A stretch of 10,702 bases of DNA from Deltaproteobacteria bacterium RBG_13_61_14 (GCA_001797815.1 MGQK01000053.1:132542-143243), one strand, 5' to 3'. Counted from the stretch's first letter, positions 423 to 10,155 are shown. Numbers and translations: made by a program. Notes: generated by a model not told the origin, from the letters alone.

Positions 423-1589
423 TTGGCGAACCTGAAGGACCAGTATGCCATTGTCGGCGCGGGGCTGACCAAGTTCGGGAAGATTTTTGATAAAAGCCCG
501 GTCGGGTTCACGCTCGAAGGGATCAAGTTGGCGGTGGAAGACGCGGGGCTAAGCCGCGATGACATTGACGGGCTTTTGGTGGCCATGCCCGCGATGATGG
601 GCGAGGAGCACGCCTGGGCGGCCCGGATCGGGGCGCTGCTGGAATTGCCGCTCACCTTCTCCTACACCATGGACATGGGCGGGGCCACGCCGGTGGCCAT
701 GGTCCAGACCGCGGCGTTGGCCATCGCGGCCGGGCTGTGCAAAACTGTGGTCTGCGCCTACGGCCACTCCGAGAACCCCCAGGGCGCGGCCTTTGCCATA
801 CCCAACCTCGAGTTCACCATGCCCTACGGCGACATCGGCGCCACCGCGCTCCAGGCCCACATCGCCCGCCGGCACATGCACGAATTCGGGACCCGGAGCG
901 AGCAGCTCGGCCAGGTGGCCGTGGCCTTCCGCCACAACGCCTGCCTCAACCCCGATGCGCAAATGTTCAGCAAGGGGCCGATCACCCTCGCGGACCACCA
1001 GCAGTCGCGCTGGGTAGTGGAGCCGCTGCGCCTGTTGGACTGCTGCGTCCAGACCTGCGGGGGCGGCGCGGTGGTGGTGACCTCGGCCGAGCGGGCCCAG
1101 GACTTGAAGCACCCGCCCGTCCTGATCTCGGGCATGGGCCAGTCGCACTCGGCCGAGATCATCGAGCCTTGGCCCGGCAAAACCGGCCACCGGGGCGGGA
1201 TCCCGGCCGGCCGGATGTGTTTCGAGATGGCGGGGATGAAGCCAAAGGACATGGACGTGATCCAGATTTACGACGGGTTCACCATCCTGGTGATCACGAG
1301 CCTGGAAAATTACGGGTTCTGCCCGATCGGGGAGGGCGGACCGTTCGCGGAGGACGGGAAGTTGAAGGTGGGCGGGGCCCTGCCCTGCTGCACCGCTGGG
1401 GGCTTGCTCAGCGAGGGGCATCTGATGGGCATGGGCCACGTGGTGGAGGGGGTGCGCCAGTTGCGCCGCCAGTGCAAGGAGCGGCAGGTCAAGGACGCGG
1501 AGATCTGTTTCGTGACCGGCTACGGCGGGGCGCCGCACACGTATCCGGTCACCTTGTGCTATTCAACTTTGATTCTGCGCCGGCCTTAA
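423..1589 (+). CDS. Thiolase-superfamily (lipid-transfer/SCP2-type) acyl-CoA enzyme
   Basis: A 388-residue member of the thiolase fold, close to the usual length of the bacterial SCP2/lipid-transfer-type thiolases that work with a DUF35 OB-fold partner; such a partner follows at 1742. Family landmarks are the N-terminal 'AIVGAGLTKFGK' strand (9-20), 'YDGFT' in the second half, 'SEGHLMGMGH' with the conserved His333, and a C-terminal 'VTGYGG' (364-369) before 'STLILRR'. The normal nucleophile region reads 'MDMGGATP' (83-90), with no cysteine. The usual C-terminal cysteine of degradative thiolases is also absent (Gly366 region), and the usual 'NTxGG' reads 'CCTAGG' (322-327). From the family this suggests C-C bond chemistry other than classical cysteine thiolysis, for example retro-aldol cleavage as in Ltp2 of steroid side-chain breakdown; that is inference. 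The TTG start is chosen for its Shine-Dalgarno and because the product then begins just before the first beta strand. Confidence 0.85.
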   Translation: MANLKDQYAIVGAGLTKFGKIFDKSPVGFTLEGIKLAVEDAGLSRDDIDGLLVAMPAMMGEEHAWAARIGALLELPLTFSYTMDMGGATPVAMVQTAALAIAAGLCKTVVCAYGHSENPQGAAFAIPNLEFTMPYGDIGATALQAHIARRHMHEFGTRSEQLGQVAVAFRHNACLNPDAQMFSKGPITLADHQQSRWVVEPLRLLDCCVQTCGGGAVVVTSAERAQDLKHPPVLISGMGQSHSAEIIEPWPGKTGHRGGIPAGRMCFEMAGMKPKDMDVIQIYDGFTILVITSLENYGFCPIGEGGPFAEDGKLKVGGALPCCTAGGLLSEGHLMGMGHVVEGVRQLRRQCKERQVKDAEICFVTGYGGAPHTYPVTLCYSTLILRRP

Positions 1590-1603
1590 AAGAAAAGAGT
1601 TTT

Positions 1604-1717
1604 ACCACAGAGACACAGAGAACACAGAGATAATTATGCTAAATCTCATAAAATACTCTTTCAATTCTTAACCTCTAAACTTCTTTTCTTTCTCTGTGCT
1701 CTCTGTGCCTCTGTGGT
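1604..1717 (+). repeat. Operon-junction inverted-repeat element 1 (CACAGAG family)
   Basis: Left arm 1604-1630 and right arm 1691-1717 are 27 nt each and are inverted copies with 2 mismatches; both begin or end with accacagag or its complement. Each arm is itself a run of 8-9-nt units of the type CACAGAGA. The 60-nt spacer is AT-rich and non-coding. The element starts 14 nt after the thiolase stop and ends 13 nt before the Shine-Dalgarno of the OB-fold gene. The outer flanks, aagaaaagag on the left and gaaattcttt on the right, also show weak inverted similarity. It could fold into a long hairpin in the operon mRNA and affect stability or coupling. It has no poly-U tail like a terminator. Confidence 0.85.
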
Positions 1718-1730
1718 GTGAAATTCTTTG

Positions 1731-1737
1731 GGGAGGA
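1731..1737 (+). promoter_or_regulatory. Shine-Dalgarno of the OB-fold gene, next to repeat element 1
   Basis: The sequence gggagga lies 4 nt before ATG 1742 and 13 nt after the right arm of the repeat element. It decides the start in favour of ATG 1742 over the GTG at 1718, which would begin immediately after the repeat arm and has no ribosome-binding site. Confidence 0.6.
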
Positions 1738-1741
1738 AGCG

Positions 1742-2155
1742 ATGTCGGAATGGGAAAAGTTTTTGCCGAAGCCGACCGAGGACACCGAGCCGTATTGGGA
1801 CTATTGCCGCAAGCAGGAGCTGCGGATGCAGAAGTGCAAGGGCTGCGGCCTGGTCCGGTTCCCGCCGAGCGTGATCTGCCCCCGCTGCTGGTCGCTCGGG
1901 CATGAGTGGGTCAAGCTCTCGGGCCGGGGCAAGGTCTGGTCCTGGGTGATCTTCCACCAGGCCTTTTACCCGGGCTATGCCGACGACGTGCCTTACAACA
2001 CCGCGATCATCGAGCTGGAAGAGGGTCCTCGGCTGCATGCCAATGTCATCGGGTGCCGGAACGAAGAGATCTATATTGAGATGCCGGTGGAAGTGGCGTT
2101 CGAGAAGGTGGACGACGAGGTAACGCTGCCCAAGTTCCGGCCGGTTCTGAGTTGA
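1742..2155 (+). CDS. Zn-ribbon/OB-fold (DUF35) partner of thiolase
   Basis: A 137-residue protein of typical DUF35 length and layout. A short N-terminal helix (MSEWEKFLPKPTEDTEPYWD) is followed by a rubredoxin-like Zn ribbon with Cys32-x2-Cys35-x10-Cys46-x2-Cys49, and then an OB-fold from about residue 55 ('WVKLSGRGKVWSWVIFH') to 'VDDEVTLPKF'. Proteins of this family form complexes with SCP2/lipid-transfer-type thiolases, for example ChsH2 domains with Ltp2, archaeal thiolase/HMG-CoA synthase complexes and BbsA with BbsB. In those complexes the OB-fold helps bind or shuttle the acyl-CoA. The position right after a cysteine-less thiolase fits that pairing. All four zinc-binding cysteines are present. 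The start is ATG with a strong GGGAGGA site. The actual substrate cannot be read from the sequence. Confidence 0.88.
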   Translation: MSEWEKFLPKPTEDTEPYWDYCRKQELRMQKCKGCGLVRFPPSVICPRCWSLGHEWVKLSGRGKVWSWVIFHQAFYPGYADDVPYNTAIIELEEGPRLHANVIGCRNEEIYIEMPVEVAFEKVDDEVTLPKFRPVLS

Positions 2156-2158
2156 AGA

Positions 2159-2190
2159 AAAGATTCAAACACTAAGGCACAAAGACACTA
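2159..2190 (+). repeat. Left terminal inverted repeat of the GxxExxY cassette
   Basis: It reads aaagattc, then an array of CAC-AAG units (actaaggcacaaagacacta). Reverse-complemented, the right copy (2634-2667) gives the same aaagattc and a near-identical array: about 18 of 22 aligned positions agree over the core with one gap. It begins 3 nt after the stop codon of the OB-fold gene. Confidence 0.7.
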
Positions 2191-2216
2191 ATTACCAAGA
2201 AAAGAGTATTGGTAAT
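2191..2216 (+). promoter_or_regulatory. Hairpin just upstream of the GxxExxY start
   Basis: A perfect 8-bp stem, attaccaa (2191-2198) with ttggtaat (2209-2216), encloses a 10-nt loop that contains aaagag. It ends 6 nt before ATG 2223, where no ordinary Shine-Dalgarno is seen except the aaagag in the loop. It may control translation of the gene or be part of the element's end structure. Confidence 0.4.
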
Positions 2217-2222
2217 CAATTA

Positions 2223-2630
2223 ATGAAAGAAAAAAACACCAATTTTGATCCAATACCCGATGAGACGGAGAAAGTCACCAAGGTAGTTGTAGATGCTGCC
2301 TATCGAGTGCATTCTCAGCTCGGCCCCGGACTTTTGGAGTCCGTGTATGAAACCTGCTTGTGTCACGAGCTTAAGCAACGCGGCGTCCCCTTTCAATCCC
2401 AGGTGGCTTGGCCGGTGATTTACGACGGCGTTCGGTTGGACGCCGGTCTTCGCTTGGACCTGTTGGTGGATAACTCGGTCATCGTCGAGATCAAGGCGGT
2501 GGAAAAAATGAATCCACTCTTTGAGGCGCAGCTCTTGACTTATCTCAAGCTGACCGGCCATCGGCTGGGACTGCTGATTAACTTCAACGTTTCCAGGATT
2601 GCAGACGGCATCCGCAGGATCGTGAAATAG
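2223..2630 (+). CDS. GxxExxY protein (PD-(D/E)xK nuclease-like)
   Basis: A 135-residue protein carrying the family's name motif, Gly36-Leu-Leu-Glu39-Ser-Val-Tyr42, after 'VVDAAYRVHSQLGPG'. Further along are Asp79 ('LRLDLLVD') and Glu89-x-Lys91 ('VIVEIKAVEK'), which match the D...ExK pattern of PD-(D/E)xK nucleases, then 'EAQLLTYLKLTG' with a Q-x4-Y-like pair (Gln103, Tyr107) and the hydrophobic strand 'LGLLINFN'. Length and order are normal for the family, whose biological role is poorly defined. A nuclease activity is plausible from the fold but not shown. The start is the only in-frame ATG before the conserved region; its Shine-Dalgarno is weak. The gene sits between inverted repeats and interrupts an acyl-CoA operon, so its job is probably tied to the element rather than to the pathway. 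Confidence 0.88.
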   Translation: MKEKNTNFDPIPDETEKVTKVVVDAAYRVHSQLGPGLLESVYETCLCHELKQRGVPFQSQVAWPVIYDGVRLDAGLRLDLLVDNSVIVEIKAVEKMNPLFEAQLLTYLKLTGHRLGLLINFNVSRIADGIRRIVK

Positions 2631-2633
2631 AGA

Positions 2634-2667
2634 ATAGTGCCTTGGTGTCTTGGTGGTAAGAATCTTT
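2634..2667 (-). repeat. Right terminal inverted repeat of the GxxExxY cassette
   Basis: Read on the minus strand it gives aaagattc followed by an ACC-ACCAAG-ACACCAAGG-CACTA array, the partner of the left copy at 2159-2190. It begins 3 nt after the GxxExxY stop, and its inner arm ends 14 nt before the Shine-Dalgarno of the acyl-CoA dehydrogenase. Confidence 0.7.
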
Positions 2668-2671
2668 CTTT

Positions 2672-2677
2672 AAGGAG
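2672..2677 (+). promoter_or_regulatory. Shine-Dalgarno of acyl-CoA dehydrogenase, abutting the cassette end
   Basis: The sequence aaggag lies 8 nt before ATG 2686 and 4 nt after the last base of the right inverted repeat. The same arm, A/T-rich stretch, Shine-Dalgarno order is seen at elements 1 and 2. Confidence 0.6.
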
Positions 2678-2685
2678 CGACAATC

Positions 2686-3840
2686 ATGGATTTTCGATGG
2701 AGCGAGGAGCAAGAACAGCTCCGCAAAATGATCCAGGACTTTTGCAAGCGCGAGACCAGCAAAGAGCTGGACCGCGAGTGCGACGAGAACGAGCGCTTTC
2801 CGCACGAGCTGAACGAGAAGCTGGCCCGGACCGGGATTTACGGCCTGCCCTTCCCGGAGAAATACGGCGGCACCGGCGGCCAGGTGATGGACTTTATCCT
2901 GGCCGTGGAAGAGCTGGCCAAGGGCAGCGAGGCGGCCTGCGCGCTCTTTTTGCTCCCGGTCTTTTTCGCGGGCGAGATGATCCTGAACAACGGGAGCGAA
3001 GAGCAGAAGCAGAAATACCTGCCCCGGATTATCGCCGGCCAGCTCAAGGGCTGCTTCGGGCTGACCGAGCCGGACGTGGGCTCGGACGCCTCGCGGGTGA
3101 AGACCAAGGCGGTCGCGGACGGCAAGGACTGGATCCTTAACGGGCACAAGACCCTGATCACCGGCGCGGACATCGCCGACCTGCTGATGATTGTGACCCG
3201 CACCGACTTCGAGGCCCGGCGCTACGAGGGCCTGAGCATCTTCATGGTGCCGCAAGGCTCCAAAGGGCTGATCGTGAAGAAGCTCAAGAAGCTGGGCGGC
3301 CGGATCATCTCCACCTGCGAGATCTTCCTGGAGGACGTGCGGGTTCCCCAGGACCTGATCCTGGGCGGGCCGGAGGGCCTCAACCAGGGCTGGCCGCAGA
3401 TGCTGATGCAGCTCGACATCGAGCGGATCATGATCGGCGCCACCCACGTGGCCCTGGCCGAGAAGGCCTTTGACGACGCGCTGGCCTATGCCAAGCAGCG
3501 GGAGCAGTTCGGCAAGCCGATCAGCACCTACCAGATGATCGTGCAAATGCTCGCCGACATGAAGACCCAGATCGAGGCGGCGCGCTGGCTCACCTACCGG
3601 GCGGCCTGGCTCAAGGACCAGAATCTCCCCTGCTCGCTGGAGGCGAGCTACTGCAAGCTCTTCGCCACCGAGATGGCCAAGAAAGTGACCCAGGACGGGA
3701 TGCAGGTGCTGGGCGGTTACGGTTACATGATGGAATACGACATGCAGCGCTACGTGCGCGACGCACTCCTCGGCACCATCGGCGGCGGCACCAACCAGAT
3801 CCAGCGCCTGATCATCGGCAAGCTGTTGGGGTGTTTCTGA
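2686..3840 (+). CDS. Acyl-CoA dehydrogenase
   Basis: A 384-residue flavoenzyme of standard length that introduces a C2-C3 double bond in an acyl-CoA. The N-terminal helical domain starts 'FRWSEEQEQLRKMIQDF'. The FAD/substrate signature 'CFGLTEPDVGSDAS' is at 123-136, followed by the beta-domain 'DWILNGHKTLITGA' (148-161). The C-terminal domain has 'AYAKQREQFGKPIS' (267-280) and 'QVLGGYGYMMEYDMQRYVRD'. The usual catalytic Glu of the 'YEGTN' motif is Gly367 here ('IGGGTNQIQR'). A Glu is present in the helix 'LDIERIMIG' (Glu246), the place used by isovaleryl-CoA dehydrogenase, so the enzyme is probably active with the alternative base. It very likely works with the upstream thiolase and OB-fold protein in one beta-oxidation-like route, perhaps for a branched or aromatic acyl chain (BbsG-like), but the substrate is not readable. 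The ATG has a good Shine-Dalgarno. Confidence 0.93.
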   Translation: MDFRWSEEQEQLRKMIQDFCKRETSKELDRECDENERFPHELNEKLARTGIYGLPFPEKYGGTGGQVMDFILAVEELAKGSEAACALFLLPVFFAGEMILNNGSEEQKQKYLPRIIAGQLKGCFGLTEPDVGSDASRVKTKAVADGKDWILNGHKTLITGADIADLLMIVTRTDFEARRYEGLSIFMVPQGSKGLIVKKLKKLGGRIISTCEIFLEDVRVPQDLILGGPEGLNQGWPQMLMQLDIERIMIGATHVALAEKAFDDALAYAKQREQFGKPISTYQMIVQMLADMKTQIEAARWLTYRAAWLKDQNLPCSLEASYCKLFATEMAKKVTQDGMQVLGGYGYMMEYDMQRYVRDALLGTIGGGTNQIQRLIIGKLLGCF

Positions 3841-4178
3841 GGGTAAAAATTCTATCCCCCCGAACCTCTTAATTTTCAAAGGAGATTTCCCCGCGACGAA
3901 CGGAATCCTTTTCCCATCTTTTGCATCTGATAACCTCAAAGGGCTCTTTCCAGAACTAAAGATTGACTGATTCGCTTGTCTTGCCGGAGTTTTATGTCCC
4001 GGATGACCCCGGGGGAAGGGATACGGTTTTACCGGCGTGGAGGCGGAAGCGGATGCTGCTGGGGGATTCAACATTTGCGGGCCAAAAACCAAGGAATGAC
4101 AAGGGGATAGCAATCCGAGCCTTGCCTGGTAAATGGAAGAGGACTAATGATTCAACCCAAAACCTAAGGAGGAAAAAC
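3841..4178. other. 338-bp intergenic gap with no gene seen
   Basis: Between the dehydrogenase stop and the coiled-coil gene there is no protein I recognise in any frame, no clear terminator and no convincing sigma70 promoter pair. The frame of the next gene stays open back to 3963, but that extension has no family features and would bury the signal peptide. The segment has mixed base composition and holds a small palindrome, ccccgggg (4007-4014). It may be the remains of a dispersed repeat or a long leader; one window cannot tell. Confidence 0.5.
4166..4172 (+). promoter_or_regulatory. Strong Shine-Dalgarno fixing the coiled-coil gene start
   Basis: The sequence aaggagg, close to a full anti-Shine-Dalgarno match, lies 6 nt before ATG 4179. 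The product from that start opens with a textbook signal peptide, so the longer reading from 3963 is rejected. Confidence 0.8.
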
Positions 4179-4742
4179 ATGAAACGCATGATGGTAGTGG
4201 GACTCATTCTCGCGGTTGGCTTGATTGGAGCCAGTGTCGCCCTGGCGCAGGCAACCGGCACCCCGACCAAAACCAAGACCGCGCCGGCAAAGAAATCGGA
4301 GCCGGCCAAGGCGGTTGCTACCCTGGAGCGGTATTGGAACATGCGGGTGGAGAAGCTGCAAGCGCAAACGCAGCACCTGAAAGACGTGGCCGCGGCCTAC
4401 GAGAAGAAAGCGGCCGAGAGCCAGACGGCCAAGGACGCCAAGGAAGCCGAGACCCGGCTGGATAAGCAGCTCAAGGACCTTCAGGCCCAGTTGGACGCGC
4501 AGATGAAGGACATTGACAAAAAATATGACGATGTGCTCGCCGAAGAGAAAAAGGACATGAGCGCCGAGCACAAGGAGCTGAACGCCAAGCGCGACGCCTG
4601 GCTGGCCCAGCACCCGGAGGTCAACGACCGGGTCAAGACCCTAGACAAGGACATCGCCGACCTCAAGGTCAAGGTGGACAATTTGAAGGCGAAAGAAAAA
4701 ACCCAGCCGAAAGCCGCGCCCACCAAGACTACTCCCTACTAA
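4179..4742 (+). CDS. Secreted Lys/Ala-rich coiled-coil protein
   Basis: A 187-residue protein of unknown function. Residues 1-23 are a signal peptide: MKR, a hydrophobic core to 'GASVALA', and an Ala-x-Ala cleavage site before Gln24. Residues 25-45 are a Thr/Lys/Pro/Ala linker. Residues about 47-172 are almost entirely charged alpha-helix with heptad-like spacing ('VEKLQAQTQHLKDVAAAYEK', later 'LDKDIADLKVKVDNLKAK'), predicted to form a coiled coil broken near 'QHPEVND' (144-150). The tail is again Lys/Pro/Thr-rich. There are no cysteines and no enzyme motif. It is probably a periplasmic or envelope structural or adaptor protein; OmpH/Skp-like or spectrin-like similarity would be superficial. 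It looks like a single-gene unit, having its own strong ribosome-binding site and a strong terminator directly after it. Confidence 0.75.
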   Translation: MKRMMVVGLILAVGLIGASVALAQATGTPTKTKTAPAKKSEPAKAVATLERYWNMRVEKLQAQTQHLKDVAAAYEKKAAESQTAKDAKEAETRLDKQLKDLQAQLDAQMKDIDKKYDDVLAEEKKDMSAEHKELNAKRDAWLAQHPEVNDRVKTLDKDIADLKVKVDNLKAKEKTQPKAAPTKTTPY

Positions 4743-4765
4743 TCCTTTCGGTCCACCCTTGCGAC

Positions 4766-4791
4766 AAAGAGGCCGGGCAACCGGCCTCTTT
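4766..4791 (+). terminator. Rho-independent terminator, probably bidirectional
   Basis: A perfect 11-bp stem, aaagaggccgg (4766-4776) with ccggcctcttt (4781-4791), is closed by a GCAA tetraloop and followed by ttcttattg. It lies between the convergent coiled-coil and gamma-carbonic anhydrase genes. On the minus strand the stem is followed by a shorter U-rich run (tctttgtcg), so it can serve both genes, more strongly on the plus strand. Confidence 0.92.
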
Positions 4792-4801
4792 TCTTATTGA
4801 T

Positions 4802-5329
4802 TTAAGCGGTGCGGTTCAGATTAAGGTGCTGGTAGCCCTGGGCATATTCCCAATAGCGTCGGGCTGAATCTCTGAACTCCTGAAGCTCCGCCGCGGTCAC
4901 CTCCCGCCGGGGCTTGGCCGGCGCGCCCAGGGCCAGGGTGCGCGGCGGGATCCGGGTGCCGGGCGTGAGCAAAGAACCCGCGCCGATGATGCACTCGTCG
5001 CCCACCTCCACCTCGTCCAAGAGGACCGCCCCCATCCCGATCAGGCAGCGGTCCCCCACCTTGCAACTGTGCAGGGTCACCCGGTGGCCCACGGTCACCT
5101 CCGAGCCCACTTCCACCGGCCACCCGCCCTGGGTAACATGGCAGATCACCATGTCCTGAAGGTTGGTCTTTTCACCGATATGGACGGCATTGACATCGCC
5201 CCGCACCACCGCCCCGAACCACACGCTCGACTCCGCCCCCATCTCCACGTCGCCGATCACAAACGCGCTCTCCATCACGATCACGCTCTCATGCAGCCTC
5301 GGCTTCACTCCCCTGAACTCCAGAATCAT
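4802..5329 (-). CDS. Gamma-type carbonic anhydrase family (hexapeptide-repeat) protein
   Basis: A 175-residue left-handed beta-helix protein of the YrdA/PaaY/gamma-carbonic anhydrase type. Hexapeptide repeats run from 'SAFVIGDVEM' (21-30) through 'ECIIGAGSLL' (112-121), ending with 'ALGAPAKPRREVT' and a C-terminal helix ('RDSARRYWEYAQGY'). The three histidines expected to bind the metal at trimer interfaces are present: His64 ('ICHVTQ'), His82 ('VGHRVT') and His87 ('LHSC'). The family includes true carbonic anhydrases and members of unclear or thioesterase-like role, so activity is likely but unproven. The start at 5329 is chosen because AAGGAG (5341-5336 on the minus strand) lies 6 nt upstream; the frame stays open further upstream but runs into the repeat element. 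It may belong to the minus-strand operon of the methyltransferase. Confidence 0.92.
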   Translation of the reverse strand: MILEFRGVKPRLHESVIVMESAFVIGDVEMGAESSVWFGAVVRGDVNAVHIGEKTNLQDMVICHVTQGGWPVEVGSEVTVGHRVTLHSCKVGDRCLIGMGAVLLDEVEVGDECIIGAGSLLTPGTRIPPRTLALGAPAKPRREVTAAELQEFRDSARRYWEYAQGYQHLNLNRTA

Positions 5330-5335
5330 CTCCAA

Positions 5336-5341
5336 CTCCTT
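5336..5341 (-). promoter_or_regulatory. Shine-Dalgarno of the gamma-carbonic anhydrase, next to repeat element 2
   Basis: AAGGAG on the minus strand lies 6 nt before ATG 5329 and 12 nt after the outer end of the repeat arm at 5354. It fixes the start and shows the same arm, A/T stretch, Shine-Dalgarno order as elements 1 and 3. Confidence 0.65.
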
Positions 5342-5353
5342 AAAAAATTTTTC

Positions 5354-5492
5354 ACCACAGAGACACAGAGGACTCAGAGCTTGGAAAATAAAAAAAGTAT
5401 TTAATTCCATTCAAACTCTGCCAGATAGATTATCCCTTTTCTTATAAAATAAATTCTATTTTCTTCCTCTGTGCTCTCTGTGTCTCTGTGGT
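5354..5492 (-). repeat. Operon-junction inverted-repeat element 2 (CACAGAG family)
   Basis: Arms 5354-5379 and 5467-5492 are 26 nt each and inverted with 3 mismatches; the first 17 nt (accacagagacacagag) are identical. The 87-nt spacer is strongly AT-rich and non-coding. Relative to transcription it has the orientation of element 1: on the minus strand the end TTAACCACAG meets the methyltransferase stop codon, and the end CTGTGGTGAAA leads into the Shine-Dalgarno of the gamma-carbonic anhydrase. A motif of the type AAATACTnTTT lies before the downstream arm in both elements. Confidence 0.85.
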
Positions 5493-6112
5493 TAACTCTT
5501 CCTCTTTCCGAACAGCATCCACCAGCTCCAGCCCGGGTGGTCGAAAACCTTGGTGAGCGCGAACCCGGCTCCCTCCACCGTCTGCACCCACCAGTCCGCG
5601 GGCCGGCCCGGATAAGGCGCATAGCGCTCCCGGTCGAGCGAGCACCAGAAGGGATGGTCGGAGGAGATGACGTGGAGGTAGAGGTGGCCGGCGAGCACGC
5701 GGAAGAGCTCGGCGAAATGGGCCGCCAGCGCCTCCGGGTGGAGATAAACCGCGGCGTTGTGGAGAGCGAGGTCAAAGGCGCGGTCCGGGAAGATCTCCAG
5801 GTTCTCGATATCCAGGTGATAGAGATAGGGCCGGACCTCCGGCGCCGCCAGCTCGAAGGCCTTGGGCGAAATATCAATCCCGAACGCATTAGCGCCGCGT
5901 TCCCGGAAGAGTCTCACGTAATGGCCCGGGCCGCAGCCCAGGTCCAGCACCCGTTGGCCCGCAATCTCGATCCCCGCTTCGGCCAGGTCGCCGAAGATTT
6001 CCTCCGGGCTCAGGACCGAGTCCGGGTCATGCGGACCCCGGCCGCCGGCATAATTTTTCCAGTAGTCTTCCCCTAATTTTTCTAAAGCCCCTTGCTCGAA
6101 CTCCCGCTTCAT
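5492..6112 (-). CDS. Class I SAM-dependent methyltransferase
   Basis: A 206-residue protein with the Rossmann methyltransferase core. Motif I is 'VLDLGCGPGHY' (55-65), the acidic residue of strand 2 is Asp80 ('FGIDIS'), and motif II/post-I is 'YHLDIENL' with 'FDLALHNAAVYLH' (113-125) as the motif IV region. The C-terminal part is rich in aromatic residues ('DHPGWSWWMLFGKRK'), which may bind the acceptor. It appears to act on a small molecule rather than DNA or rRNA, but the acceptor cannot be named. Its ATG overlaps the TGA of the upstream permease by 4 nt (ATGA, 6109-6112), so translation is probably coupled. The TAA stop overlaps the edge of repeat element 2 (TTAACCACAG), so the insertion may have reset the C-terminus. 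Confidence 0.88.
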   Translation of the reverse strand: MKREFEQGALEKLGEDYWKNYAGGRGPHDPDSVLSPEEIFGDLAEAGIEIAGQRVLDLGCGPGHYVRLFRERGANAFGIDISPKAFELAAPEVRPYLYHLDIENLEIFPDRAFDLALHNAAVYLHPEALAAHFAELFRVLAGHLYLHVISSDHPFWCSLDRERYAPYPGRPADWWVQTVEGAGFALTKVFDHPGWSWWMLFGKRKS

Positions 6113-6915
6113 GCTCGGCTCCGGGGCGTGAGGTAGAGGTCGCGGAGCCCGTCGCCCAAAAAGTTGAAGCCGAGCACGGTGACGAGCACGGCCAGGCCGG
6201 GGAAGATGGAGAGGTAGGGCGCGGTGCGCAGGAAGCTCTGGCCCTCGTTGAGCATGGCGCCCCAGCTCGGCAGGTTCTGCGCGCCCAGGCCGAGGAAGGA
6301 GAGCGAGGCTTCGGCCAGGATGGCCGCGGCCATGCCGAAGGTGGCCTGCACGATCACCGGCGCGCTGACGTTGACGAGCAAGTGCCGAAGCACGATGCGG
6401 CCGGGGCTGGCCCCGAGCGCGCGCGCGGCCTGGACGTAATCCTTTTCCCGCTCGACCAGCACCTGCCCGCGCACCAGGCGGGCGTAGCCGACCCAGCCCA
6501 GGATGGAGAGGGCGAGGATGACGTTCTCCAGGCTGGGGCCCAGCACCGCGGCCAGGGCGATGGCGAGGAGGATGCCGGGAAAAGCCTGGAGCACGTCCAC
6601 CACCCGCATGAAGAGCTGGTCCAGGGCGCCGCCGAAATAGCCGGAGAGCGAGCCGACCAGGATTCCGATCAGGGCGGAGATGGTCACCGTGGCCAGGCCC
6701 ACGATGGCCGAGACCCGCGCGCCGTAGATCAGACGCGAGAGCACGTCGCGGCCGTGCTTGTCCTGGCCGAGCCAGTGCTGGGCCGAGGGGCCGTGGAGCC
6801 CGTCGCACAAGGCCTGTTGTTTGGGTGAATAAGGCGCGAGTGCGGGCGCCAGGAGCGCGGTGGCCACCAGCAAAAGCGCCACCAGCGCGCCGAGGATGAG
6901 GCCGGCCCGGCTCAT
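6109..6915 (-). CDS. Dpp/Opp-type ABC transporter permease (DppC-like)
   Basis: A 268-residue inner-membrane subunit of a peptide/nickel-type ABC importer. It has an N-terminal membrane helix ('GLILGALVALLLVATALLAPALAPYSP', 5-31), the family sequence 'HWLGQDKHGRDVLSRLIYGAR' (47-67), several more membrane helices ('LATVTISALIGILVGSLSGYF', 'GILLAIALAAVL') and the ATPase-contacting EAA loop 'YVQAARALGASPGRIVLRHLL' (160-180). The end is typical ('LGFNFLGDGLRDLYLTPR'). It overlaps the DppB-like gene upstream and the methyltransferase downstream by 4-nt ATGA junctions, so the three genes are translationally coupled. No ATPase gene follows. Length is slightly short for the family but no domain is missing. 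Confidence 0.95.
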   Translation of the reverse strand: MSRAGLILGALVALLLVATALLAPALAPYSPKQQALCDGLHGPSAQHWLGQDKHGRDVLSRLIYGARVSAIVGLATVTISALIGILVGSLSGYFGGALDQLFMRVVDVLQAFPGILLAIALAAVLGPSLENVILALSILGWVGYARLVRGQVLVEREKDYVQAARALGASPGRIVLRHLLVNVSAPVIVQATFGMAAAILAEASLSFLGLGAQNLPSWGAMLNEGQSFLRTAPYLSIFPGLAVLVTVLGFNFLGDGLRDLYLTPRSRA

Positions 6916-7838
6916 GCTCTTCCCTCCAGGCGGACGCGGGGGTCCACCGCGGTGTAGAGGAGGTCGGTGATCAGATTCACCATGACATAAGTCAGGGCGA
7001 TGGCGAGGACCGAGCCCTGGACCAGGGGGAAGTCCCGAGTCTGGATGGCCTCGATCAGGAGCCGGCCCAGTCCGGGCCAGGCGAAGATGGTCTCGGTGAT
7101 GATGGCGCCGGAGAGGAGCGCGCCGAACTGGAGCCCGATGATGGTGAGGATGGGCACGCCGGCGTTGCGGAGCGCGTGCTTGAGGATCACCCGCGGCTCG
7201 GAGAGGCCGCGGGCGCGGGCCGCGGTCAGGTGCGGCTCGGAAAGCGCCTCGAGCAGGCTGGCGCGGGTCATGCGCGACAAGAGCGCGGCCATGGCCAGGC
7301 CCAGGGTCAAAGCCGGGAGCGCGAGGTGAAAAAGCCCGCCCCGGCCGGAGACCGGGAGCCACTCCAGCTTGAGGGAGAAGACCAGGATGAGCATGGGCCC
7401 GAGCCAGAAGTTGGGGATGGAGACGCCAAGGAGCGCGAAGCCGGTGGATAAGGAATCGGCCCAGCGGCCGCGGCGGAGCGCGGCTACGATGCCGAGGGGG
7501 ATGGCGAAGAGGCAGGCCAGGGCCATGGCGGCGAGGGCCAGCTCGAAGGTGGCGCCGAGCCGGGCAAAAACCTTGCGGCTGACCGGCTCGTGGTAGAAGA
7601 TGCTCTCCAGCTTGCCGGTGGCCAGGCCGGAGAAGAACAGCCCGAACTGGACCGAGAGCGGCTCGTCCAGGTGGAGCTGGTGGCGGAGCGCGGCGCGGTC
7701 GGCCGCGGAGGCGGACTCGCCGAGCATCACCTCCACCGGGTCGCCGGGGATGAGGTGGATGAAGAGAAAGACCAGGACCGAGGCGCCGATCAGCACCGGC
7801 AGGGTAAGGAGGAGCCGTTTAAGGAGGTAGAGGCGCAC
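6912..7838 (-). CDS. Dpp/Opp-type ABC transporter permease (DppB-like)
   Basis: A 308-residue permease, full length for DppB/OppB. The first membrane helix 'LLKRLLLTLPVLIGASVLVFLFIHLIPGDPV' (5-35) carries the family signature 'IPGDPV'. Other landmarks are 'ALLGVSIPNFWLGPMLILVFS' (135-155), the EAA loop 'LTAARARGLSEPRVILKHALRN' (204-225), 'ETIFAWPGLGRLLIEAI' (249-265) and 'AVDPRVR' near the end. It pairs with the DppC-like subunit through an ATGA overlap. The start is a GTG (7838) without a visible Shine-Dalgarno, which is odd for a gene inside an operon and may reflect the loss of its original upstream junction when the HEPN/MNT pair came in. The substrate class (peptide, nickel or similar) is not readable from permeases alone. 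Confidence 0.95.
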   Translation of the reverse strand: MRLYLLKRLLLTLPVLIGASVLVFLFIHLIPGDPVEVMLGESASAADRAALRHQLHLDEPLSVQFGLFFSGLATGKLESIFYHEPVSRKVFARLGATFELALAAMALACLFAIPLGIVAALRRGRWADSLSTGFALLGVSIPNFWLGPMLILVFSLKLEWLPVSGRGGLFHLALPALTLGLAMAALLSRMTRASLLEALSEPHLTAARARGLSEPRVILKHALRNAGVPILTIIGLQFGALLSGAIITETIFAWPGLGRLLIEAIQTRDFPLVQGSVLAIALTYVMVNLITDLLYTAVDPRVRLEGRA

Positions 7839-7890
7839 AAGGGAATTGTAGGAAATTTTTGGGGGAAAGGATAGAGGGCGAGAAATTCGA

Positions 7891-8289
7891 TTATCGCTTT
7901 ATCAAAGAAAGAACGGCTTCCCGAATGGCTTTGACCGCGGCCAAGAGTTCTTCGATCACTTCCGTAGAAAACACGAACCGACTCCTCGGATAACGAGGAG
8001 CCACTGCGAATTGACTCAAGAGATTGGCATGGTCTGAGAGCCTTTGGAGTTCGGGATGAAAGGAAACGCATTGAGCCAGGATATAAGCGATATCATGCAC
8101 CGGTTCCGGCTCGCGTCAGTGATATTGGAGAAGACCCTTCAGATATTTTTCCGCGGCCTGCTGGCAATGAAAGGAAGCCACGTCTAAGGGACCCTCTGGA
8201 TCTGCCAAAATCAACTCAACGACTTTAAGGTCGTGATCCGCCTTTTCGATCCACTCTTTTTCCGGACTTTCCGAGGGAGGTTTATCCAT
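7891..8289 (-). pseudogene. HEPN-domain gene broken by an in-frame TGA
   Basis: Read from ATG 8289, the frame encodes 57 residues ('EWIEKADHDLKVVELILADP', 'DVASFHCQQAAEKYLKGLLQYH'), then TGA at 8118-8116, then continues in the same frame to TAA at 7891 with 75 further codons ('REPEPVHDIAYILAQCVSFH', 'LLSQFAVAPRYP'). Both halves are unmistakably HEPN, and the total of 133 codons is normal. Homologues usually have Gly at the stop position ('YHGREP'), so one change of GGA to TGA explains it. The stop falls directly before the R-x5-H motif (Arg59, His65), the RNase active site of HEPN toxins, so the product lacks the catalytic part. The start overlaps the end of the MNT gene by 8 nt, the usual pair arrangement. 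A second short product from GTG 8100 is possible but would lack the Arg. Confidence 0.85.
8116..8118 (-). other. In-frame TGA replacing a probable Gly codon in HEPN
   Basis: The codon after 'LLQYH' is TGA, and the conserved frame resumes at once with 'REPEPVHD'. TGA is a true stop elsewhere here (acyl-CoA dehydrogenase, both permeases), so this is a nonsense mutation or a sequencing/assembly error, not recoding. Confidence 0.75.
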
Positions 8290-8593
8290 AAAGGACTCTG
8301 CCTTTTTTTAAAACCAGGTTTATCAGGGTCCCTCGGACATTCTGGTCTTCGGCAACCTCGGCCGGCGTCAACACTAGAATATCCATGGGAAAGGAAGGCG
8401 GCCAGAGGAATTTCCGAATCTCCAGCCCGCGGCGATGGGGCGGAAGGGCGGTCTCCTGGATGATAAGCAGATCCACGTCACTGTGCGCCTCGGGGCTGCC
8501 GTAGGCCCAGGAACCGAAGAGAATGATCTTTTGCGGATGAAACCGCTCCCCGATTTTGTGCGCCAGCGCCTGAATGTCCTCTTCCCGGATCAT
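8282..8593 (-). CDS. MNT-type nucleotidyltransferase (antitoxin of HEPN/MNT pair)
   Basis: A 103-residue minimal nucleotidyltransferase with an intact active site: 'LFGSWAYGSPEAHSDVDLLI', that is Gly27-Ser28-x10-Asp39-x-Asp41, plus the third carboxylate Asp71 in 'PMDILVLTP'. In studied HEPN/MNT toxin-antitoxin pairs (for example the Shewanella oneidensis pair) the MNT protein blocks the HEPN RNase by adding AMP to it. The gene overlaps the HEPN start by 8 nt, as expected for such a pair. ATG 8593 is preferred because the product then begins with the usual short helix before the nucleotide-binding strand. A TTG at 8629 in the same frame would overlap the solute-binding protein gene. No clear Shine-Dalgarno is visible. 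With its toxin broken, this antitoxin is probably an orphan. Confidence 0.88.
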   Translation of the reverse strand: MIREEDIQALAHKIGERFHPQKIILFGSWAYGSPEAHSDVDLLIIQETALPPHRRGLEIRKFLWPPSFPMDILVLTPAEVAEDQNVRGTLINLVLKKGRVLYG

Positions 8594-8613
8594 GGCATCA
8601 GAATAGCATAAGT

Positions 8614-10155
8614 TTATTCCGAACTCCAATCCGCCTGGGCCAGCGAGCGGTAATCGCCCTCGGGAAAAAGCTGGAAGCCCTGCAGCCGGCGGTCGCTGAC
8701 CACGGTGTCGGTGGAGTAAAACAGGCTGACGTAAGGCAGGTCAAGGGCCAGGATCTTCTGGACCCGGCCGTAAATGGCCCGGCGCTCGGCCGGATCGAAC
8801 GTCTTCCGGCCGGCCTCGGTCAGCCGGTCCACCTCCGGGTTGCGATAGCGGCCGCGGTTGGCTCCGGCTGGGGGAATGCTTTTGGAATGGAAAGCGGTGT
8901 AATAGATATCCGGCTCGGTCACCCCCACCCAATCCAGCGAGTAAAGCTGGAAATTGCCGGCCTGGATGTCGGCGAAAAGCGTGCCCCACTCCAGGCTCCG
9001 CACCGCCACCTCGATCCCCACCTCGCCCAGCGCGTAGGCAATGGCCTCGACCATCCGGCGCCGGAGCTTGTTCTGGGAGGTCTTGTAAAGCAAATGGAAG
9101 CGCGGAGCGCCCTCCGCCGGCCGGGGAAAACCGGCCCGGTCGAGCAACTCCTGGGCCCGCGCGGGGTTGTAATCATAGGTTTCCGCCTCGCGCTCGTAAG
9201 CCCAGTGGCCGGGCGCCAGCAGCCCGGTGGCGAGCTGAGCCTGGCCGCGGAAAAAGCAATCCGCCAGCTCCTGCCGGGGAATGGCATGGGCAATCGCCTC
9301 GCGGACTTCCCGGCGCTTGAGGATCGGGTCTTCCAGGTTAAAGCCCAGGTAGGTGTAGTTGGTCCCGGGCTGAGACCGGATTTGCAGCCGGGGATTTTGC
9401 TCCAACACCGGCAGGTCGTCGGGCGGGACCGAGTTGAGGAGCAGTTGGACCTCCCCGCGCTCGAGCGCCATGACCCGGGTGACATCATCGGGAAGCACGC
9501 GAAAGACCAGGCGGGAAATTTTGGGAGCCGGGCCGGCGCAAAAGGGATTGGGTTCCAGCACGATCTCGCCGCCTTGCTCCCACGAGCGCAGCCGATAAGG
9601 CCCGGAGCCGATCGGGCGCCGGCCGAACTCTTTGCCCAGGCGCCGGGCGTCGGCCTCGGGCACGATGCCGAACACGAGTTCGGTGAAGAGCGGGGCGTAA
9701 GGCTCGCGGAGCTGGAGGCGCACGGTGCGGGGATCGAGGGCGGTCACTTCTTGCAGCCGCTGGGCCAAGGCCTGGCGGGCCGAGCGGAGCTCCGGGTCGG
9801 CCAGGCTCTGAAGAGTATAGACCACGTCCCGGGCCCGGACCTCGCGGCCGTCGCTGAAGCGGGGGCCGGCGCGCAGGTGAAAAATTACGGTCAGGGGTTC
9901 GGGCTGTTCCCAGCTCTGGGCCAGGTCGGGGATGACTTCGGCGTTGGCATCCACCTGCACCAGGGAGTGAAAGAGCAGGGGAAGGATCCGGGTGGAATAA
10001 GCATCCCGGGCCACCCGCGGGTCCAGGGTGGTGGGGTTTCCTTCCAGGCCGATCACCAGGCCCTGGTGGGTTGAGGGCAGAGAACCCGAGGGACGACAGT
10101 CAGGAACCAGAAAAAAAAGAAGAAAAAAGTTGACTTTGAGGAAACGATATGGCAT
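8614..10155 (-). CDS. Family 5 (peptide/nickel-type) ABC solute-binding protein
   Basis: A 513-residue exported receptor of a Dpp/Opp-type importer. The N-terminus 'MPYRFLKVN' plus 'FFLLFFLV' is a signal sequence; Cys20 follows in 'VPDC', a poor lipobox because of the Asp at -1, so lipidation is uncertain. The mature part opens with the family pattern 'GLVIGLEGNPTTLDPRVARD' (32-51), followed by 'LLFHSLVQVDANAEVIPDLA' and 'FHLRAGPRFSDGREVRARDV' (92-111). Later come 'GSGPYRLRSWEQGGEIVLEP' and 'EVREAIAHAIPRQEL', all typical. The permeases of the same system follow after the HEPN/MNT insertion. ATG 10155 and TTG 10167 are both possible starts; neither has a Shine-Dalgarno, and ATG is chosen. The ligand cannot be deduced. 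Confidence 0.93.
   Translation of the reverse strand: MPYRFLKVNFFLLFFLVPDCRPSGSLPSTHQGLVIGLEGNPTTLDPRVARDAYSTRILPLLFHSLVQVDANAEVIPDLAQSWEQPEPLTVIFHLRAGPRFSDGREVRARDVVYTLQSLADPELRSARQALAQRLQEVTALDPRTVRLQLREPYAPLFTELVFGIVPEADARRLGKEFGRRPIGSGPYRLRSWEQGGEIVLEPNPFCAGPAPKISRLVFRVLPDDVTRVMALERGEVQLLLNSVPPDDLPVLEQNPRLQIRSQPGTNYTYLGFNLEDPILKRREVREAIAHAIPRQELADCFFRGQAQLATGLLAPGHWAYEREAETYDYNPARAQELLDRAGFPRPAEGAPRFHLLYKTSQNKLRRRMVEAIAYALGEVGIEVAVRSLEWGTLFADIQAGNFQLYSLDWVGVTEPDIYYTAFHSKSIPPAGANRGRYRNPEVDRLTEAGRKTFDPAERRAIYGRVQKILALDLPYVSLFYSTDTVVSDRRLQGFQLFPEGDYRSLAQADWSSE

What the first reader, a model, noticed from the sequence alone, without database searches (positions are those of the whole stretch)
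1590..5494. Three operon-junction elements with one shared architecture and orientation
At three co-directional gene junctions (thiolase/OB-fold, OB-fold/acyl-CoA dehydrogenase, methyltransferase/gamma-carbonic anhydrase) the same order is visible: stop codon, 0-14 nt, CAC-rich arm, spacer or gene, inverted arm ending in GGTG or GGTA, 12-14 A/T-rich nt, Shine-Dalgarno, start codon. All three point the same way relative to transcription although they lie on different strands. Random insertion would not give this. Either the element targets stop/Shine-Dalgarno junctions or it carries the downstream ribosome-binding site with it, which would make it a portable operon connector.
Basis: partly seen in the sequence, partly recalled or inferred. 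Interest (0 to 1): 0.72.

Follow-up and report, generated by a model that had tools for sequence, protein, structure and literature searches.

The report
Hairpin elements lodged after stop codons
Small hairpin-forming DNA elements, some carrying one gene (a probable nuclease or a four-helix-bundle protein), sit right behind the stop codons of bacterial genes and read in the same direction as the operon, and this holds on average across many unrelated bacteria.

Summary
The architecture is in the sequence at the stated places. E1 (1590-1730) and E3 (5340-5509) are long hairpins; E2 (2152-2673) is the same kind of element around a GxxExxY gene (PD-(D/E)XK nuclease family). "Pointing the same way" is empty for E1 and E3, which are palindromes, and real for E2.

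Genome-wide, 21 of 28 complete elements of this class begin within 20 nt after a stop codon (9.5% expected from intergenic space, P=2e-16). A second repeat class that contains the same arms does so in 0 of 12. Across 115 armed loci in 69 genomes, GxxExxY and S23 genes lie in sense behind a gene whose stop touches the upstream arm (75 against 30 for the mirror image; discordant 54:9, P=6e-9).

Arm words go with the cargo: CRC-type words in 40/47 GxxExxY but 1/68 S23 loci; S23 arms are mostly 7-nt repeats, as in the Coxiella 23S-rRNA intervening sequence. The element does not carry a Shine-Dalgarno. Gene-less copies in one other genome show no stop preference.

Best reading: a widespread dispersed element, related in design to rRNA intervening sequences, that folds out of the transcript and lodges at operon junctions. 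How it moves was not shown.

The parts
1587..1589 (+). stop codon of the thiolase-like gene (423-1589)
1590..1603 (+). outer A/T- and purine-rich end of E1, still part of the RNA stem
1604..1630 (+). E1 left arm ACCACAGAGACACAGAGAACACAGAGA
   Evidence: I7, 93% complementary to 1691-1717
1691..1717 (+). E1 right arm
1730..1736 (+). Shine-Dalgarno GGGGAGG of the OB-fold gene, left unpaired beside the stem
2153..2155 (+). stop codon of the OB-fold (ChsH2-like) gene
2156..2190 (+). E2 left arm (CACTAAGGCACAAAGACACTA with outer AGAAAAGATTC)
   Evidence: L084, arm score 33 against 18 in shuffles
2223..2630 (+). E2 cargo: GxxExxY protein, PDDEXK_3 nuclease family, 135 aa, D79/E89/K91 conserved
2635..2671 (+). 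E2 right arm (TAGTGCCTTGGTGTCTTGGTGGTAAGAATCTTTCTT)
2672..2677 (+). Shine-Dalgarno AAGGAG of the acyl-CoA dehydrogenase gene (2686-3840)
5492..5494 (-). stop codon of the methyltransferase gene, inside the edge of E3
5467..5495 (-). E3 upstream arm (in transcription sense)
   Evidence: I8
5351..5379 (-). E3 downstream arm (in transcription sense)
   Evidence: I8, 86% complementary
5336..5341 (-). Shine-Dalgarno AAGGAG of the gamma-carbonic anhydrase gene (4802-5329)

Best explanation
E1, E2 and E3 belong to a widespread class of dispersed inverted-repeat elements. Each has two long arms built of short repeated words and holds nothing, or one gene (GxxExxY nuclease-like or S23 four-helix-bundle protein), between them. 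They lodge preferentially in the gap directly behind the stop codon of a co-transcribed gene, with the cargo gene in sense. When transcribed, the arms pair into a long stem, so stop codon and next ribosome-binding site lie side by side at its base and the insert is nearly neutral for the operon; this is the same trick by which the S23-bearing intervening sequences sit harmlessly in 23S rRNA. Shown: architecture, copy number, position and sense bias, arm-cargo correspondence, presence/absence between related species at the same stop codon, strong hairpin potential. Inferred: that the cargo protein acts on its own arms and moves the element, that gene-less copies are moved in trans, and that folding is what makes the site tolerable.
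For: Copies: 74 arm matches against 1 control, 307 against 24; nested copies show separate insertion events. Position in the home genome: 21/28 within 20 nt after a stop, null 9.5%, P=2e-16; 1e-4 under a null that weights every gap equally; 138-nt class 0/12. Few copies in convergent gaps, which have no promoters to protect: 2 against 19, P=4e-9. Sense bias of cargo: 82/115 against 40/115, discordant 51:9; with ORFs of at least 150 codons 75 against 30, discordant 54:9, P=6e-9; one locus per genome and family 34:4, P=6e-7; random positions 5.8%. Arms match cargo: CRC-words 40/47 against 1/68, P=1.6e-22; S23 arms have period 7 in 42 of 58 periodic cases. Same stop codon with different repeat inserts or none in sister species. 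RNA hairpins z -5.5 and -5.1, stem starting 4 nt after the stop in E1. Conserved D-ExK triad and PD-(D/E)XK-like fold, nearest Cas4 SSO0001 at Foldseek E 1e-3. The Coxiella IVS has heptamer repeats before an S23 ORF and is cut out by RNase III (PMC4990558).
Against: Gene-less CAC copies in an unrelated genome (G048's counterpart G088) show no stop preference: 3/14, null 11%, although 6 of 7 armed cargo loci there are in sense. Movement was not observed; no target-site duplication was identified; no relative close enough to the home genome was available for exact empty sites at E1-E3. The four cyanobacterial loci were chosen because the element lay behind a stop. The word pattern used was defined after seeing arms.
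Confidence: 0.62

Rival explanations
1. Random insertion followed by loss of harmful copies: only the few bases between stop and ribosome-binding site tolerate an insert in a compact operon, so survivors are found there.
For: The home genome is about 84% coding by the caller used; gene-less copies in a less compact genome (G088) are not tied to stops.
Against: Long convergent and co-directional spacers hold far more tolerant sequence, yet the simple class has 2 copies in convergent gaps against 19 behind co-directional stops (P=4e-9), while the 138-nt class in the same genome sits in just such long gaps (0/12 near stops). Selection against damage also does not by itself give the 54:9 sense bias.
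Confidence: 0.2
2. A host-beneficial operon connector: the hairpin is kept because it sets mRNA processing, partial termination or translational coupling between neighbouring genes.
For: Strong hairpins between stop and start; sense orientation and intercistronic position.
Against: Genes after an element have an SD less often (8/19 against 68%); sister species carry different inserts or none at the same junction; no terminator was detected at the arms; most orthologous thiolase/OB-fold junctions examined have a gap of a few nt and no element.
Confidence: 0.1
3. A portable connector that brings its own ribosome-binding site.
For: All three window copies have a good SD 11-16 nt after the right arm.
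Against: Only 8 of 19 stop-proximal copies have one; its sequence and distance vary; 6 of 19 instead have an SD-like tract between stop and left arm.
Confidence: 0.03
4. Unrelated hairpins (terminators or chance palindromes) that resemble one another.
For: Palindromes are common between genes.
Against: Shared arm words, copy number, cargo families, arm-cargo match; terminator scan finds none here; no Rfam family matches.
Confidence: 0.02

Closest known systems
23S rRNA intervening sequences (IVS) with S23 / TIGR02436 / PF05635 ORF, e.g. Coxiella burnetii
   Same: Inverted-repeat ends that pair into a long stem, one small ORF in the loop read in the direction of the host transcript, tandem heptamers before the ORF (PMC4990558); S23 loci here have 7-nt arm words.
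   Different: Here the site is the junction behind a protein gene's stop codon, not rRNA; the window's element carries GxxExxY instead of S23 and has 8-9-nt CRC words; gene-less copies abound.
MITEs / intergenic palindromes such as ERIC, REP-BIME, NEMIS (from general knowledge)
   Same: Short palindromic dispersed repeats in transcribed intergenic DNA, probably moved in trans.
   Different: Arms are made of degenerate repeated words, no transposase family is known for them, and the copies are fixed to the post-stop position in the home genome.
Cyanobacterial short tandemly repeated repetitive (STRR) heptamers (from general knowledge)
   Same: Strings of 7-nt words such as GGGAACA and GGCAAGA were found directly behind stop codons at junctions where a sister species has the CCACAGAG element.
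   Different: STRR are usually described as plain tandem repeats without arms or cargo; the link is a lead only.
Avd of diversity-generating retroelements
   Same: Avd and S23/IVS proteins are reported as structural relatives (PMC10053308).
   Different: No reverse transcriptase or variable repeat was looked for or seen near these elements.

Membership tests
S23-type intervening-sequence element | Inverted-repeat ends able to form a long RNA stem | tested here: met
   115 of 160 cargo loci have arms above shuffles
S23-type intervening-sequence element | S23 (TIGR02436) ORF in the loop | tested here: not met
   E2 carries GxxExxY (TIGR04256), E1 and E3 no gene; 8 S23 loci exist elsewhere in the genome, 7 of them with other arm words by eye
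S23-type intervening-sequence element | Located inside 23S rRNA and cut out by RNase III | tested here: not met
   E1-E3 lie between protein genes; RNase III cleavage not testable
GxxExxY / PDDEXK_3 protein family (E2 ORF) | Score above curated cut-offs of TIGR04256 and PF13366 | tested here: met
   150.7 bits against 35; 145.6 against 22
GxxExxY / PDDEXK_3 protein family (E2 ORF) | PD-(D/E)XK active-site residues | tested here: met
   D79 and K91 invariant, E89 at 90% or more in 26 sequences; model pLDDT 93; nearest PDB folds Cas4 and lambda exonuclease, weak
MITE (non-autonomous mobile element) | Multiple dispersed copies with shared inverted ends and no transposase | tested here: met
MITE (non-autonomous mobile element) | Ends shared with an autonomous copy | tested here: inconclusive
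   GxxExxY copy at C75:35251 has arm CACAGAGACACAGAGAGCACAGAG, identical to gene-less C107:59639, but GxxExxY is not a shown transposase
MITE (non-autonomous mobile element) | Target-site duplication | tested here: inconclusive
   flanks compared by eye; none recognised; no exact empty site in the home lineage
Intrinsic terminator | Short GC-rich stem with a T-run | tested here: not met
   one search finds none at E1-E3

The most novel reading that the evidence does not exclude
Two unrelated small proteins (a PD-(D/E)XK nuclease and a four-helix bundle related to Avd) each drive their own kind of word-built inverted-repeat element, and insertion is steered to the ends of translated genes, perhaps through the transcript or the terminating ribosome, with rRNA intervening sequences and cyanobacterial heptamer repeats being members of the same system.
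Probability: 0.22. Interest if true: 0.9.

Novelty: new variant of a known kind. Interest (0 to 1): 0.7.

Why it matters
rRNA intervening sequences have been called selfish elements of unknown origin for decades. If they are one case of a much wider class that lives at operon junctions, with a fixed reading direction, a place behind stop codons and arm words that go with the cargo protein, then two common 'hypothetical' protein families gain a testable role, and a large set of unexplained intergenic repeats gains a common explanation. Genes behind such elements often lack their own SD, which would also bear on how operon expression is set.

Tried and rejected
SD carried by the element: rejected. 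Terminator: rejected. Rfam: no match in the window. Plasmid- or phage-borne cargo: 7 of 72,556 plasmids and 0 of 50,697 phages hold a relative, so it is chromosomal. Direction of palindromic copies from the order of G and A in the arm words: 9 against 2 in sense, too few to claim. Replication of the gene-less copies' stop preference in G088: failed. Orthologous E1/E2 junctions: OB-fold homologues were found only in distant genomes (37-47% identity), where thiolase stop and OB-fold start are mostly a few nt apart or overlap and no element is seen; too distant to fix the exact insertion point. Solved relatives of GxxExxY by sequence: none. Papers: nothing found that describes operon-junction copies or links GxxExxY to such repeats, in an open-access library only.

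Full report
What is in the window. Arms of E1 are 93% and of E3 86% complementary over 27-29 nt. As RNA, both fold far better than shuffles (z -5.5 and -5.1; none of 200 shuffles as good), and in E1 the stem begins four nt behind the stop codon and ends just before the free GGGGAGG. The gene in E2 is a GxxExxY protein (TIGR04256, PDDEXK_3) with the D-ExK residues kept across 26 relatives. Its model is confident (pLDDT 93), and its weak nearest solved folds are Cas4 and lambda exonuclease. E1 and E3 are palindromes, so their 'orientation' carries no information.

Copies in the same genome. The 4.74-Mb genome has 74 matches to the CAC arm against 1 for the reversed pattern, and 307 against 24 with a degenerate form. 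Two classes appeared. The simple class comprises hairpins of about 65-270 nt or with one gene inside. A second class has 137-143 nt between the arms and long extra ends (TTAACCCGGAAAATGCAATTAGG...). Some simple elements are nested in others (C24:13016, C106:102574, C124:28033), so they arrived at different times.

Position. Of 28 complete simple sites (E1 and E2 merged into one site by the procedure), 21 begin within 20 nt after a stop codon that faces them (20 if one overlapping call is dropped) and 23 lie between co-directional genes. Random intergenic bases would give 9.5% (P=2e-16); choosing gaps with equal weight gives 38.9% (P=1e-4). The second class gives 0 of 12. Survival of harmless insertions alone does not explain this: convergent gaps, where no promoter is at risk, offer 22.0 kb against 8.6 kb behind co-directional stops, yet hold 2 elements against 19 (P=4e-9).

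Ribosome-binding sites. An SD-like motif lies between arm and next start in 8 of 19 stop-proximal cases, against 428 of 627 co-directional genes without an element; 6 of 19 have one between stop and arm. The element is therefore not a carrier of SDs. In distant orthologues of the thiolase/OB-fold junction the stop overlaps or abuts the SD and the start is mostly within a few nt.

Other genomes. 160 loci of GxxExxY and S23 (TIGR02436) genes were gathered by protein family, independent of arms. 115 of them, in 69 genomes, have inverted arms above shuffles. A caller-free test asked whether a long ORF ends at the upstream arm in sense, or at the other arm in antisense. With ORFs of 150 codons or more it is 75 against 30 of 115, discordant 54:9 (P=6e-9); without the home genome 50:9; one locus per genome and family 34:4; random positions give 5.8%. 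The stop-to-arm distance is mostly -8 to +13 nt.

Arms and cargo. Words of the type CACAGAG, CGCAAAG or CGCAGAT fill the arms of 40 of 47 GxxExxY loci but of 1 of 68 S23 loci (Fisher P=1.6e-22). S23 arms use other words; 58 of 68 are periodic, 42 of those with period 7, whereas GxxExxY arms have periods 8-10. The word pattern was written after looking at examples, which is a caveat, but both kinds occur in one genome. The Coxiella 23S intervening sequence has tandem heptamers (GACAGAT) in front of an S23 ORF, inverted ends and RNase III excision (PMC4990558), so it has the same build at a different site.

Same place, different insert. In a genus that I take from its sequence to be cyanobacterial (G048, G145-G150), four junctions were compared. 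Behind the same stop codon, sister species carry CCACAGAGTCACAG, strings of GGGAACA, other repeats, or nothing; in the empty alleles the native stop is at the same place within a codon or so. The stop thus belongs to the host gene there, not to the element. These loci were chosen because the element lay behind a stop.

Limits. In G088, gene-less CAC hairpins show no stop preference (3 of 14), although 6 of 7 armed cargo loci there are in sense. The home genome has no close relative in the holdings, so exact empty sites of E1-E3 are unknown. Movement, cutting of arms by GxxExxY and folding in the cell are inferred.

Verdict. The finding is real and general in its core: a class of word-built inverted-repeat elements, related in design to rRNA intervening sequences, sits in sense behind stop codons. 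The 'portable ribosome-binding site' half of the idea fails.

Noticed in passing
home genome, e.g. G000:C65:6127-6264, C81:130622-130759, C99:29315-29452 (12 sites in the sample): A second repeat family with CAC arms 137-143 nt apart, a conserved interior and extra outer ends TTAACCCGGAAAATGCAATTAGG / TTCCAACTGCACGATTCGGGTTAA; found in long gaps, never within 20 nt of a stop.
   Followed up: partly
L079:270-856 (G000:C128): CAC arms flank an MlaD-domain gene (PF02470, 168 aa) between a stop and the next gene: possibly a host gene caught between two arms.
   Followed up: partly
L037 C24:13016, L070 C106:102574, L078 C124:28033: CACAAG-type elements inserted inside CACAGAG-type elements.
   Followed up: partly
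L085 (G000:C23:7049-7396): Fourth GxxExxY copy with an internal TGA, a probable decaying copy, still with arms and behind a stop.
   Followed up: no
G048 and sister genomes (L243-L299): Post-stop positions are hot spots for strings of 7-nt words (GGGAACA, GGCAAGA, GGCAGTA) and one-sided CCACAGAG arms; may tie cyanobacterial STRR repeats to S23-type arms.
   Followed up: partly
ends of contigs C32, C79, C101, C110 of the home genome: Contigs break within or a few hundred bases from CAC arms, so copy number is probably underestimated.
   Followed up: no
window 7889-8593, minus strand: A small nucleotidyltransferase gene (NTP_transf_2, 8285-8593) followed by a stretch with no intact frame, perhaps a broken partner gene.
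   Followed up: partly
window 6109-10155, minus strand: Two ABC permease genes and a family 5 solute-binding protein gene (peptide or nickel uptake type), ordinary.
   Followed up: no
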